This document shows positions 37,114 to 40,437 of a DNA stretch of 41,220 nucleotides, one piece after another; positions within the stretch are counted from its first letter, which is position 1, and each line of letters starts with the position of its first letter. Source of the DNA: Ferrovibrio sp. (GTDB lineage: Bacteria > Pseudomonadota > Alphaproteobacteria > Ferrovibrionales > Ferrovibrionaceae). Where the stretch lies: NCBI RefSeq assembly GCF_002796975.1, contig NZ_PEKV01000012.1:246035-287254 (forward strand). Reading direction: 5' to 3'. A model generated the notes under the pieces. That model saw only the letters and a list, made by a program, of their open reading frames with translations. It ran no database searches and had not been told where the DNA came from. A program made the translations under genes and the position numbers.

Positions 37114-40100
37114 TCAATTCCGGCGACGGCGATCACTCTGTCGGAGCAGTTCGCCCATATCCTCGGGCGGTACCGGCCGGCTGATCAGATAGCCCTGCAA
37201 CTCGCTGCAACCGACGCCGCGCAGGAAGTCGCGCTGCGCGGCGGTTTCCACGCCTTCGGCCACCACCGGCAGATCAAGACCGTTTGCCATACCGATCATG
37301 GCGCGGACCAGTGCAATGTCGCGGTCGTTGCCGGGCAGGTCGGCGATGAAGGCGCGGTCGAGCTTGATCTTGCGGATCGGCAGCCGCTGGATATAGCTGA
37401 GCGACGAATAGCCGGTGCCGAAGTCGTCGAGCGCAGCGTCGATGCCGATCTCTGCCAGTTCTTTGATGGCCTGCACGGTCGCTTCCATATTCTGGATCGC
37501 GGCCTGTTCGGTGATCTCAATGCCGATGAAGGGCATCATATCGGCCTCTTCCTCGGCCAGCTTGCGGAAATAGGCTGGCAGGTCGTCGCGGATGAACTGC
37601 TGACCCGACACGTTGACGAAGACACGGCGCGGCTCGATGCCGGTCCGGCGCCAGGTGCGAATCTGCTCGGCCACATTGGCAAAGACCCAGCGCGTGATCT
37701 GCACGATGCTGCCGGTTTCCTCGGCCAGCGGAATGAACTCGGCCGGAGAGATCGGTCCCAGGTCCGGGTGTTTCCAGCGCAGCAGCGCCTCGATGGCGCA
37801 GATCGCGCCACTCGAAGTCTCGACCACCGGCTGATAGACGATGTGGAATTCATCGTTTTCGATAGCGGCATCCAGATTCATCGTCAGGCGCAGGCGGCGT
37901 TCGGCAGCGCGGGTCATTTCCGGGCTGTAGAAGCGGGTCGAATCACCGCCGGCCGAGCGAACCAGTTTCATCGCCAGTTCCGCCTTGGCCAGGGCGTCAC
38001 CGATTTTTTCGCTTGGATCGTCGACGATGGCGGCGCCCATGCTGACCTTGAGCGGCACCAGGCGGCCCTCGGCGGAGACGGGCTTGGTCAAATGCTGATG
38101 CACGGTCTGTGCAAGATTAAGCGCGTTGTTCAGATCGTTGACGCCGGCCAGCGCGGAGAACTGGTCGGCCGCGATACGCCCGATCAGCGCCTCGCGCGGC
38201 AGCACCTCGCCCAGCCGTTCGGCGATGCCTCGCAGCACCGTGTCGCCGATGTGATAGCCGAAGCCCTCGTTGATATCGCGGAAGCCATCCATGTCGAGAT
38301 TGAACAGCACCCACAGGCCGCCATCCAGACGGTGCTGCGCACCCAGCATGCGCTCGGTCTCAGCAATGAAGCTGGCGCGATTGAGGATGCCGGTCAGCGG
38401 GTCGTTGCGGCTGGCAAACTCGGCGCGCAGTTCGACATCGCGGCGGTCGGAAATGTCGCGGATCAGGCCGATGAAGGCCGGTCCGTCTTCGCCAGCGTAT
38501 TCGCCGACGCTGATATGAATGGGGAAAATCTCGCCAGATTTCTTGCGGCCCAGCGTATCGCGGCCCAGGCCCAGGATCTTGGCACGCTTGGTGGTGAGGT
38601 AGTTGCGGACATAAGAATCGTGCCCGGAGCGGAAAGGCTCCGGCATCAGCAATTTGACATTCTGGCCGTTCAGTTCGCCGGGAGCGTAGCCGAAAATCGT
38701 AGCGCAGGTGTCGCTGGCATTGGCGATCGCGCCCTGGCCGTCGATTGTCAGCATGCCTTCATTCATCGTGGCGAGCAGGGTGCGCAGCGTTTCTGCCAGT
38801 TCGTTGCCGGCTTGTCGCGATGCGGGCGTCTCCGCCTTGCGCTGCGGCGCGACTGGGGCGGGCGTGCTGGGAGGCGCGGACTCAGGTGGCGCGACCGGCG
38901 GTGTCCATTCCTGATCCGCATCCGACAGCAGACGCCAGTTCGGGAAAGTCATCTGCGCCTGCGTGCCGCTGCCGATGGCGCTGCTGAGTGACAGCGAGCC
39001 GCCATGCAGTTCCATCAGGCGCTTGCTGATCGACAGACCGAGGCCGGTGCCGCCGTGCTGGCGCGCGACTTCCGCCTTGGCGAGCTGGAAGGGCTCGAAA
39101 ATATGTTCCAGCCGGTCGGGCGGAATGCCGATGCCGGTGTCGATGACGGTCAGGGACGGCGTACCGTCCGGCAGCTGGCGGAACACCACGTCGATGGTGC
39201 CGCTGCTGGGCGTGAATTTCACGGCGTTGCCCAGCAGGTTGATCAGCACCTGCTTGATCACGCGCTCGTCGGCGCGCAATTGCGGCAGCGTATCGGGCGA
39301 CAGGTTGCGCAGGGTGATGCCGCCGCGTTCGGCCTGCGGGCGCACCATGGTCAGTGCCGACTGGATCACAGCCGAGAGATCGACGGCCTTTTCATCCAGC
39401 GCGTAATAGCCGGCCTCGATGCGGGACATGTCCAGGATGTCGCCGATCAGCGCCAGCAGATGCGTGCCTGAGCCGTTGATGTCGCGGGCGTAATCGACAT
39501 AACGCGGCACACCCACCGAGCCGAACATCTGGTCGCGGATGATTTCCGAGAAACCGATGATGGCGTTCAGCGGCGTGCGCAGCTCATGGCTCATATTGGC
39601 CAGGAACTGGCTTTTCGCGCGGCTGGCTTCCTCGGCCTGGCGCAGGGCCGATTCGATGCGGCGCTGCTGGCGATATTGCTCAGTGATGTCGCGGCCCGAG
39701 CCACGATAGCCCATGAAGCGGCCATTGGCGTCGGACACCGGCTTGCCGTTGATTTCGATCCACAGCTCGTTCTCGCCCATGATCGAGCAGTAGCGGAAAC
39801 CGCGGAACGGCTCGTGGCGGTCGAGTTGACGGCGGTGATCTTCCCAGAACAGGGTGTCTGATTCGTTGTCGCCCTGGATGGCGACTTCCCAGCGGCAGCG
39901 ACCGAGGAACAGGTTGCGCAAAGCTGTGGTCTGCCCGCTCGAAGATTCGGAAATCCAGGTGAAGCGGTGATCCCCGTCGGTTTCCCAGAACCAGTCAGAC
40001 GCCAGTTCGGCGAAATCGCGCAGCTTGTATTCGGCGACCTGCAGCGCGACCTGGTGCATCCGCTCCGGGGTGCTGGCCTCGGCAATCACCATCAGCCCAT

Positions 40101-40437
40101 TCACCCGGCCGTTATTGTCGTTCAGCGGGGCAACTGTCAGACCCTGGCAGAGCCAGCCATTGGCCCAGCGGATCAGCGTATTGCCGATCTGGCGCCGACC
40201 CTCGCGGCGTGTCTGGTCCAGCAGGTCGCGAACCTTGGTCGCTTCGCCCAGGGCAAAGCCGGCGGAGAGACCCTGGCCGGCCAGGGCCTCGGCGTTCATT
40301 TCCGTTAAAGCGGCATAGGCCGTGTTGCAGGACACGTATCGGTAATCATCGCCCGGGCCATACTCAACCGTAAAGGCAGGCCGATCGAGCCAGTCGAGTA
40401 TGTCCTGCGTCAGTTTCCGCTGGTTCGGATCGAGCAT
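37114..40437 (-). CDS. PAS-PAS-histidine kinase-PAS(FixL-like)-GGDEF-EAL sensor protein
   Basis: This 1107-residue protein has no membrane segment. Order: PAS (~20-125); PAS (~145-260, DWFWETDGDHRFTW); HisKA with His284 (MSHELRTPLN); HATPase (LGNAVKFT, DTGIGIP, GGTGLGLSISKRL); Pro/Ala linker; PAS (~535-665); GGDEF; EAL from Glu883. The third PAS has LMPEPFRSGHDSY, with His606 at the FixL haem ligand and Arg626 at the oxygen-contacting arginine, aligning without gaps. The GGDEF motif is AADQF (756-760), so cyclase activity is unlikely. EAL keeps EALLRW, VNVSGQQ, IEITE, LDDFGTGY, IKLDR, EGVET and QGY, so c-di-GMP hydrolysis is likely. No receiver domain is present. ATG 40437 chosen; an upstream frame extension to 40500 is weak. 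Confidence 0.9.
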   Translation of the reverse strand: MLDPNQRKLTQDILDWLDRPAFTVEYGPGDDYRYVSCNTAYAALTEMNAEALAGQGLSAGFALGEATKVRDLLDQTRREGRRQIGNTLIRWANGWLCQGLTVAPLNDNNGRVNGLMVIAEASTPERMHQVALQVAEYKLRDFAELASDWFWETDGDHRFTWISESSSGQTTALRNLFLGRCRWEVAIQGDNESDTLFWEDHRRQLDRHEPFRGFRYCSIMGENELWIEINGKPVSDANGRFMGYRGSGRDITEQYRQQRRIESALRQAEEASRAKSQFLANMSHELRTPLNAIIGFSEIIRDQMFGSVGVPRYVDYARDINGSGTHLLALIGDILDMSRIEAGYYALDEKAVDLSAVIQSALTMVRPQAERGGITLRNLSPDTLPQLRADERVIKQVLINLLGNAVKFTPSSGTIDVVFRQLPDGTPSLTVIDTGIGIPPDRLEHIFEPFQLAKAEVARQHGGTGLGLSISKRLMELHGGSLSLSSAIGSGTQAQMTFPNWRLLSDADQEWTPPVAPPESAPPSTPAPVAPQRKAETPASRQAGNELAETLRTLLATMNEGMLTIDGQGAIANASDTCATIFGYAPGELNGQNVKLLMPEPFRSGHDSYVRNYLTTKRAKILGLGRDTLGRKKSGEIFPIHISVGEYAGEDGPAFIGLIRDISDRRDVELRAEFASRNDPLTGILNRASFIAETERMLGAQHRLDGGLWVLFNLDMDGFRDINEGFGYHIGDTVLRGIAERLGEVLPREALIGRIAADQFSALAGVNDLNNALNLAQTVHQHLTKPVSAEGRLVPLKVSMGAAIVDDPSEKIGDALAKAELAMKLVRSAGGDSTRFYSPEMTRAAERRLRLTMNLDAAIENDEFHIVYQPVVETSSGAICAIEALLRWKHPDLGPISPAEFIPLAEETGSIVQITRWVFANVAEQIRTWRRTGIEPRRVFVNVSGQQFIRDDLPAYFRKLAEEEADMMPFIGIEITEQAAIQNMEATVQAIKELAEIGIDAALDDFGTGYSSLSYIQRLPIRKIKLDRAFIADLPGNDRDIALVRAMIGMANGLDLPVVAEGVETAAQRDFLRGVGCSELQGYLISRPVPPEDMGELLRQSDRRRRN

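What the first reader, a model, noticed from the sequence alone, without database searches (positions are those of the whole stretch)
37114..40437. FixL-like haem-PAS fused to a histidine kinase core and GGDEF-EAL, beside cytochrome oxidase
Residues around His606 align without any gap to the FixL haem-PAS: HD-S-Y at the proximal position, ILGLGR ending in Arg626 at the oxygen-contacting arginine, then FPIHISVGE. The residue matching FixL Arg206 is Asn. The domain feeds an EAL module in a protein that also carries a full kinase core, and the gene is divergent from coxB. This suggests an oxygen- (or NO/CO-) sensing c-di-GMP phosphodiesterase that could link respiration to lifestyle, like DosP but with a kinase half. 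I know of no described protein with exactly this order.
Basis: partly seen in the sequence, partly recalled or inferred. Interest (0 to 1): 0.78.

Follow-up and report, generated by a model that had tools for sequence, protein, structure and literature searches.

The report
Kinase fused to haem-PAS c-di-GMP phosphodiesterase
In bacteria of the genus Ferrovibrio, a gene lying between tldD and the cytochrome oxidase gene coxB joins an intact-looking histidine kinase to a FixL-like PAS domain that is predicted to bind haem and to a module predicted to break down the signal molecule c-di-GMP, so it would likely let oxygen tune c-di-GMP levels; the parts are known, the combination is unusual.

Summary
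The minus-strand ORF 37114-40437 (1107 aa) reads PAS-PAS-HisKA-HATPase-(Pro-rich linker)-PAS-GGDEF*-EAL. The third PAS is 41% identical to Bradyrhizobium FixL without a gap (50/121), its model fits O2-bound FixL at 1.3 A, and His606, Asn612 and Arg626 are invariant in 25 of 25 sequences, as are the kinase and EAL catalytic residues. GGDEF is degenerate (AADQF), so the C-terminal half is predicted to be a phosphodiesterase.

What changes: (1) the fusion was found only in this genus (10 of 10 genomes held); its PDE half is sister to kinase-less PAS-GGDEF-EAL proteins, and the linker is hypervariable, so the haem signal most likely feeds the EAL module while the kinase has its own input. (2) The coxB neighbourhood is an insertion into an older tldD/coxB pair (7 of 7 other genera's genomes lack the gene there). 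(3) The gap to coxB holds a palindrome, GCGACAAATCGTCGC, invariant in 10 of 10 genomes and resembling RegA/PrrA sites; a like site lies in 6 of 7 of those other genomes. Haem, O2 response and both activities are untested. New variant of a known kind.

The parts
37114..40437 (-). whole gene, 1107 aa: PAS-PAS-HisKA-HATPase-linker-haemPAS-GGDEF*-EAL
   Evidence: 24 full-length orthologues 68-95% identical
40075..40350 (-). N-terminal PAS_A (residues 30-121)
   Evidence: Pfam PAS_4 stretch; 22 of 122 columns (1-122) invariant
39673..40035 (-). PAS_B-like domain (residues 135-255), inferred
   Evidence: no Pfam call in this protein; PF08447 (PAS_3) in the precomputed lists of orthologues P0021 and P0022
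39409..39618 (-). HisKA/DHp (residues 274-343), phospho-acceptor His284
   Evidence: PF00512; 64 of 70 columns invariant in 25 sequences
38941..39270 (-). HATPase_c (residues 390-499) with N404, D433-G435-G437, G463-G467
   Evidence: PF02518; these residues invariant 25 of 25
38797..38940 (-). Pro-rich hypervariable linker (residues 500-547) between the two halves
   Evidence: 2 of 48 columns invariant; pLDDT under 50 at 504-547
38446..38796 (-). FixL-type PAS, predicted haem domain (residues 548-664)
   Evidence: model m486284c72f18 pLDDT 90.4, first 20 PDB matches all FixL, 1.3 A to 1dp6
38620..38622 (-). His606, counterpart of proximal haem ligand His200 of BjFixL
38602..38604 (-). Asn612, at BjFixL Arg206
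38560..38562 (-). Arg626, counterpart of O2-contacting Arg220 of BjFixL
37945..38406 (-). degenerate GGDEF (residues 678-831)
   Evidence: PF00990
38158..38172 (-). AADQF in place of GGDEF (residues 756-760)
   Evidence: A, A, D, Q invariant 25 of 25, last residue F 21 / Y 4
37174..37875 (-). EAL domain (residues 855-1088) with E883, N942, E974, D1004, D1005, K1025, E1061, Q1081
   Evidence: PF00563 E 6e-71; residues invariant 25 of 25
40543..40557 (.). palindrome GCGACAAATCGTCGC in the gene/coxB gap, RegA/PrrA-like, 106 nt from the gene's ATG and 110 nt from coxB's
   Evidence: invariant with the next base (16 nt) in 10 of 10 genomes
40667..41220 (+). coxB (start; runs off the window)
35559..37010 (-). 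tldD, downstream on the same strand, 103 nt away
   Evidence: PmbA/TldD Pfam domains

Best explanation
This is a two-module signalling protein: a PAS-PAS histidine kinase with a complete set of kinase motifs joined by a variable proline-rich linker to a FixL-type PAS, a degenerate GGDEF and an EAL domain, in which the PAS is predicted to bind haem and O2 would likely switch the EAL domain's predicted c-di-GMP hydrolysis. Shown by sequence: the domain order, the conserved FixL haem-pocket pair His606/Arg626, the intact EAL and kinase residues and the loss of the GGDEF catalytic motif. Inferred: ferrous haem on His606 binds O2 (or CO/NO) with Arg626 on the distal side; the state of the haem passes through the PAS-GGDEF helix to the EAL dimer, as in AxPDEA1 and DosP. 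My guess for the sign is the AxPDEA1 one (deoxy haem = active PDE), with little confidence. The kinase half is most likely driven by its own N-terminal PAS pair and phosphorylates a separate response regulator (there is no receiver in the protein); because the linker is hypervariable, rigid haem-to-kinase coupling is unlikely, and fusion would mainly keep the two outputs in one dimer and in fixed ratio. The gene most likely arose in the Ferrovibrio line by joining a kinase-less haem-PAS phosphodiesterase to a PdhS/PleC-like kinase, and it sits in the old tldD/coxB junction, where a RegA-like site between the two start codons may make its transcription, like that of coxB, respond to redox.
For: Ungapped 41% identity to BjFixL; AF2 model of the PAS closest to FixL structures, rmsd 1.3 A and TM 0.93 on 1dp6. 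His606, Asn612, Arg626 and all listed kinase and EAL residues invariant in 25 of 25. GGDEF lost: AADQ invariant 25 of 25. PDE half sister to nine kinase-less proteins with support 100/100; 9 of 9 of these keep His and Arg, and those read have altered GGDEF motifs (GADEF or AADEF). Linker 2 of 48 columns invariant against 64 of 70 in HisKA. Fusion in 10 of 10 genus genomes and not listed for any of the other 51 of 61 genomes. Insertion between tldD and coxB. RegA-like palindrome 10 of 10, a like site in 6 of 7 genomes of other genera, P about 6e-7 from shuffles (caveats under evidence against); RegB over cut-off, a RegA fragment beside it. Published: DosP and AxPDEA1 are haem O2-sensor PDEs of opposite sign (PMC4263535, passages); SmFixL Arg200 variants keep oxy-like spectra as isolated and bind CO (PMC10765370, passages).
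Against: No biochemistry. Both FixL propionate-side residues differ (Arg206 -> Asn612, His214 -> Lys620; the role of His214 is recalled), and in SmFixL the Arg is said to stabilise the O2-bound inhibited state, so a FixL-like switch cannot be assumed. Coupling of haem to the kinase is not excluded: the full-length model is too poor to place the halves (pLDDT 61.5, pTM 0.35), and independence rests only on the variable linker. The RegA consensus is loose: the R. capsulatus form matches 115 times in the window (shuffles mean 76), GCGAC-N5-GTCGC is not enriched genome-wide (24 places, control pattern 78), the form of the motif tested was chosen after seeing the window's site, and the seven genomes are related, so its P is too small. 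No partner response regulator was identified.
Confidence: 0.6

Rival explanations
1. One integrated oxygen sensor: the haem PAS, placed after the kinase, sets both the EAL phosphodiesterase and, through the shared dimer, the kinase.
For: Both catalytic halves intact in 25 of 25; DHp and PAS-GGDEF helices could be collinear in a parallel dimer (inference); the fusion is retained in 10 of 10 genomes, which suggests that joining matters.
Against: Linker 500-547 hypervariable (2 of 48 invariant) and low-confidence in the model; in FixL the haem PAS precedes the kinase; the kinase has PAS domains of its own.
Confidence: 0.25
2. The PAS has the FixL fold but does not sense O2 in the cell: it binds another ligand, or its haem mainly reports redox or NO.
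For: Arg206 and His214 replaced by Asn and Lys; SmFixL Arg200 variants autoxidise in air (PMC10765370, passages); 113 of 162 other PAS matches in this sample lack one or both of the pair.
Against: His606/Arg626 both kept 25 of 25; ungapped FixL match; distal-side residues 621, 642 and 644 stay hydrophobic (I/V, I/L, V/I).
Confidence: 0.2
3. The coxB neighbourhood has no functional meaning: the gene simply landed in the tldD/coxB gap.
For: tldD/coxB adjacency without the gene in 7 of 7 genomes of other genera; no oxidase domain in the four flanking ORFs scanned at two kinase-less relatives.
Against: Position kept in 10 of 10 genus genomes (in one of them, G006, only the coxB side is on the contig), with a palindrome invariant between the two start codons.
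Confidence: 0.4

Closest known systems
FixL (Bradyrhizobium, Sinorhizobium)
   Same: haem PAS: 41% identity to BjFixL without gap, His and Arg pair, closest fold
   Different: PAS lies after, not before, the kinase and feeds GGDEF-EAL; Asn at Arg206, Lys at His214; the kinase core scores higher with PdhS and DivJ models than the FixL model does over the protein
AxPDEA1 (Komagataeibacter) and DosP (E. coli), haem-PAS c-di-GMP phosphodiesterases
   Same: haem PAS - GGDEF - EAL order in the C-terminal half; NCBIfam DosP model's best stretch is residues 677-1100
   Different: neither has a histidine kinase (recalled; PMC4263535 passages treat both as PDEs); the AxPDEA1 sequence was not compared here
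Kinase-less PAS-GGDEF-EAL proteins (P0029 Skermanella, P0030 Azospirillaceae, P0025 and six others)
   Same: sister clade of the PDE half, 45-49% identity, 9 of 9 with the His/Arg pair
   Different: no kinase match (9 of 9); no oxidase domain in the flanking ORFs scanned at two such loci
P0129 (Insolitispirillum peregrinum) and P0130: HisKA - PAS - GGDEF - EAL proteins
   Same: His/Arg PAS before GGDEF-EAL, with a HisKA upstream
   Different: no HATPase in their Pfam lists, so not a kinase by themselves; a receiver-like N-terminus by eye (PF00072 listed for P0130 only); not sister in the tree, so an independent build
Kinase - GGDEF-EAL proteins such as P0037 and P0061
   Same: kinase and GGDEF-EAL in one chain, in that order (55 of the 211 proteins examined)
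   Different: no match to the window's PAS profile at 1e-5; P0037 and P0061 list HAMP, receiver and Hpt domains

Membership tests
FixL-type haem PAS | proximal His at the position of BjFixL His200 | tested here: met
   His606, 25 of 25
FixL-type haem PAS | distal Arg at the position of BjFixL Arg220 | tested here: met
   Arg626, 25 of 25
FixL-type haem PAS | PAS fold like the FixL haem domain | tested here: met
   model pLDDT 90.4; 1.3 A to 1dp6; haem not modelled
FixL-type haem PAS | Arg206 propionate contact that helps switching | tested here: not met
   Asn612, 25 of 25; also not Arg in 36 of 49 other His+Arg domains
FixL-type haem PAS | binds haem and O2 | not testable with these tools
   needs spectra
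FixL (whole protein) | haem PAS N-terminal to the kinase | tested here: not met
   PAS follows the kinase; NCBIfam FixL model 151 bits of 850 needed
FixL (whole protein) | FixJ partner | not tested
   no partner search was made beyond ten neighbouring ORFs
haem-PAS c-di-GMP phosphodiesterase (DosP/AxPDEA1-like) | haem-type PAS before GGDEF-EAL | tested here: met
haem-PAS c-di-GMP phosphodiesterase (DosP/AxPDEA1-like) | intact EAL catalytic residues | tested here: met
   25 of 25; catalytic roles recalled from EAL literature
haem-PAS c-di-GMP phosphodiesterase (DosP/AxPDEA1-like) | ligand-dependent c-di-GMP hydrolysis | not testable with these tools
   needs assay
DosP equivalog (NF008467) | score over curated cut-off | tested here: not met
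   348.8 of 857 bits
diguanylate cyclase | GG[DE]EF active site | tested here: not met
   AADQF/Y
histidine kinase | phospho-acceptor His, N, G1, F and G2 boxes | tested here: met
   H284, N404, D433/G435/G437, F447/F450, G463/G465/G467, 25 of 25; box names recalled
PdhS/PleC/DivJ-type kinase | equivalog score over cut-off | tested here: not met
   PdhS 246.6 of 2000, DivJ 214.1 of 1000 bits; like them in the kinase core only
RegA/PrrA binding site | match to published consensus or bound site | tested here: met
   fits SSGNVRDNHYSNCSS, a loose motif; same half-sites and spacing as R. capsulatus ChIP peak 9, GCGACCGTTCGTCGC at ccoNOQP (PMC5359404, passages)
RegA/PrrA binding site | RegA binds here | not testable with these tools
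   needs footprint or ChIP

The most novel reading that the evidence does not exclude
A single polypeptide in which one haem PAS reads oxygen and controls two outputs at once, c-di-GMP breakdown and phosphotransfer to a PdhS/PleC-type response regulator, made in Ferrovibrio by placing the fused gene in the redox-regulated coxB promoter region, so that the cell's oxidase supply, second messenger and a phosphorelay follow the same oxygen signal.
Probability: 0.2. Interest if true: 0.72.

Novelty: new variant of a known kind. Interest (0 to 1): 0.5.

Why it matters
Haem-PAS kinases (FixL) and haem-PAS phosphodiesterases (DosP, AxPDEA1) are textbook oxygen sensors with separate outputs. A natural protein carrying both a full kinase core and a haem-type-PAS phosphodiesterase module, kept in every genome held of one genus and not found in neighbouring genera, gives a recent fusion in which to ask whether one gas sensor can drive two outputs or whether two sensors are merely tied together. 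Its place opposite coxB, with a conserved RegA-like site in between, makes a link from respiration to c-di-GMP directly testable.

Tried and rejected
Full-length structure: modelled with 25 sequences, too poor to place the domains; not used. FNR box in the gap: best matches to TTGAT-N4-ATCAA have 4 mismatches in the window and 2-4 in the other nine genomes; rejected. Chance match of the FixL motif: rejected on the ungapped alignment and model. Asn612 as a sign of lost haem binding: rejected, since Asn is the second commonest residue there (12 of 49 His+Arg domains). Frameshift artefact: rejected, one open frame in 9 of 10 genomes and only broken by contig ends in G006. General link of this PDE type to oxidase genes: not seen in the four flanking ORFs scanned at two loci, two or three of which have no Pfam match at all. 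Partner response regulator: no receiver domain among the ten neighbouring ORFs scanned; DivK/PleD were not searched for. A free kinase half: P0212 (92% identical, named partial, Ferrovibrio terrae) stops inside the linker; P0213 (506 aa, 3034-nt contig) equals the Ferrovibrio sequence up to the HisKA His box and then turns into another kinase, without a PDE half; I read it as a chimeric assembly at a conserved stretch, but a real kinase-only variant is not excluded. Library searches for a described protein of this order (listings only) and for Ferrovibrio (first 15 of 63 listed) gave none; the library lacks most subscription journals. One search was too broad to help and one search returned nothing.

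Limits: the protein searches list only the best 120 of 2973, 6769 and 7231, and the row lists and the genome list are cut. AxPDEA1 itself was not fetched.
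Full report
Setting. The window lies at G000:C9:246035-287254. The nearest named relatives are Ferrovibrio records (P0004, P0013, P0015, P0019, P0020; L001, 92% identical), so the genome is taken as Ferrovibrio (inference); G001-G009 are in the same genus by the tool's kinship. The genome has five EAL matches over the Pfam cut-off (a sixth below it) and eleven GGDEF matches over theirs, so it is equipped for c-di-GMP signalling and this is one of five EAL proteins.

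Observation. Pfam gives PAS_4, HisKA, HATPase_c, PAS_9/PAS, GGDEF and EAL. The third PAS matches FixL chains first (E 9e-29) and DosP after (3e-7) among PDB sequences, 50 of 121 identical to 1dp6 without a gap. Its AF2 model (pLDDT 90.4) has FixL structures as its first 20 matches and 1.3 A rmsd to 1dp6. One of them, 2cmn, is titled as a study of the proximal arginine and reads Ala at that arginine, so a FixL haem domain without it still folds and was solved.

Conservation. In 25 sequences (window plus P0001-P0024) the following are invariant: His284, Asn404, Asp433, Gly435, Gly437, Gly463/465/467 of the kinase; His606, Tyr609, Asn612, Lys620, Arg626 of the PAS; Glu883, Asn942, Glu974, Asp1004, Asp1005, Lys1025, Glu1061, Gln1081 of the EAL; and Ala756, Ala757, Asp758, Gln759 in place of GGDE. 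Invariant columns by domain: PAS_A 22 of 122, PAS_B 41 of 121, HisKA 64 of 70, HATPase 73 of 110, linker 2 of 48, haem PAS 44 of 117, GGDEF 69 of 154, EAL 138 of 234. Of 16 such codons checked in 10 genomes, 14 vary synonymously; Arg626 is CGC in all ten and Lys1025 AAG in the nine that reach it. So the residues, not the DNA, are held. The sharpest constraint is on the DHp, the weakest on the linker, which suggests a kinase with a fixed partner and a loose tether to the second half (inference).

Is His/Arg plus Asn odd? Among 162 other PAS matches in the proteins (BjFixL and the genome's own FixL-like kinase P0121 included), 49 have both His and Arg; of these the 206 position is Arg in 13, Asn in 12, His in 8 and something else or a gap in 16. 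In S. meliloti FixL, variants of that arginine (R200A/Q/E/H) keep near-normal spectra and CO binding but autoxidise, and the arginine is said to stabilise the O2-inhibited form (PMC10765370, passages only; that Sm Arg200 equals Bj Arg206 is my reading). So Asn612 does not argue against haem, but it leaves the switch open.

Origin. Of 61 genomes searched (own included), 9 have a full-length match (residues 1-1106 or more) and G006 has it cut by contig ends: 10 of 10 genomes of the genus; no full-length match is listed for the other 51 (rows run from the best down and the list is cut at weaker matches). In 385 class genomes, 8 match the PDE half at E <= 1e-105: four Ferrovibrio and four others with open frames of 618-821 aa; the two nearest of these carry no kinase domain. 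Of 211 proteins examined (P0001-P0211, P0121 being the genome's own), 28 have the order kinase-PAS-GGDEF-EAL: 24 are the orthologues, P0129 and P0130 have a HisKA without HATPase, and P0113 and P0046 lack the Arg in that PAS. In a tree of 41 PDE halves, Ferrovibrio (8 of 25 rows given) and nine kinase-less PAS-GGDEF-EAL proteins are sisters at 100/100, and P0129/P0130 lie elsewhere (the other 24 rows were chosen by me from the hit lists). 9 of 9 of the sister group keep His and Arg and those read have GADEF or AADEF at the GGDEF site, so GGDEF decay came before the fusion and the loss of the catalytic Glu after it (inference). Only two of the nine are named, Skermanella and an Azospirillaceae bacterium. 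The kinase half, after two Ferrovibrio-like records discussed under Tried and rejected, scores best with free PAS-HisKA-HATPase kinases at 43-48% identity, and with PdhS and DivJ models, far under their cut-offs.

Place. tldD, the gene and coxB are consecutive in 9 of 10 genus genomes, and coxB flanks the gene in the tenth, whose contig ends inside the gene. In the family's other genera coxB was found in 7 of 8 genomes, and in 7 of 7 tldD is its divergent neighbour 260-735 nt away by match ends, without this gene; the longest of these gaps could hold a short unrelated ORF. The simplest reading is that the gene was inserted into an older junction; loss in the other genera is not excluded.

Promoter gap. 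The 229 nt between the gene's ATG and coxB's hold one GCGAC-N5-GTCGC palindrome at 40543-40557, 106 and 110 nt from the two start codons; 16 nt (GCGACAAATCGTCGCA) are invariant in 10 of 10 genomes in an otherwise variable gap. GCGNC-N5-GNCGC occurs in 6 of 7 tldD/coxB gaps of other genera against shuffle fractions of 0.03-0.24 each, P about 6e-7; the motif form was fixed after seeing the window's site and the genomes are related, so this P is too small, though the direction is clear. In the window at large the loose forms are common (17 matches, shuffles 8.3; 115, shuffles 76), and the strict form is not enriched genome-wide (24 places against 78 for the control), so the case rests on place and conservation. 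R. capsulatus RegA ChIP peak 9, at ccoNOQP, is GCGACCGTTCGTCGC, and peak 27 lies at a PAS protein and a diguanylate cyclase/phosphodiesterase gene listed as activated (PMC5359404, passages only); published RegA, PrrA and RegR motifs are degenerate and unlike one another (PMC5506826, passages only). RegB is in the genome over its cut-off (516 of 350 bits), with a RegA reading beside it at 244 of 250 bits, cut short by assembly Ns. My reading is that coxB is an old RegA target and that the inserted gene now shares the site; binding is untested.

Mechanism and weight. Best reading: two sensor-output modules in one dimeric chain, the second a haem-PAS phosphodiesterase (DosP and AxPDEA1 are the models, with opposite signs; PMC4263535, passages only). 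Haem binding 0.85, PDE activity 0.85, O2 as physiological input 0.65, independence from the kinase 0.6, RegA control 0.5; all my estimates. Nothing here shows activity.

Novelty. A new arrangement of known modules, kept in one genus. I found no description (listings), in a library that lacks most subscription papers.

Noticed in passing
L040:5290-7557 (G000:C2): FixL-like hybrid kinase P0121 with two tandem PAS domains that both carry the His/Arg pair, a third PAS without it, kinase core and a receiver-like end (by eye): a second predicted haem sensor in the same genome.
   Followed up: partly
L039:7256-7258, the first bases past the window's right end: Assembly Ns cut the coxB reading frame; open frames of 293-369 aa at coxB in the nine other genus genomes suggest an assembly gap, not a truncated CoxB.
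   Followed up: partly
L082:1435-3265 (G000:C35): RegB/RegA redox two-component pair; regA is also interrupted by assembly Ns.
   Followed up: partly
P0129, P0130: HisKA-PAS-haem-type PAS-GGDEF-EAL proteins with HisKA but no HATPase: an independent look-alike, not a kinase by itself, that may use the DHp as a dimer or phosphotransfer platform.
   Followed up: partly
P0213 (506 aa): Record identical in kind to the Ferrovibrio N-terminal half up to the HisKA His box, then a different kinase and no PDE half; chimeric assembly or a real kinase-only variant.
   Followed up: partly
window 24986-26515 (-): Adenylate/guanylate cyclase catalytic domain protein (PF00211), so a possible second cyclic nucleotide signal in the same window.
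   Followed up: no
window 29779-30567 (-) and 33739-34791 (-): ORFs of 262 and 350 aa without any Pfam match at 1e-5.
   Followed up: no
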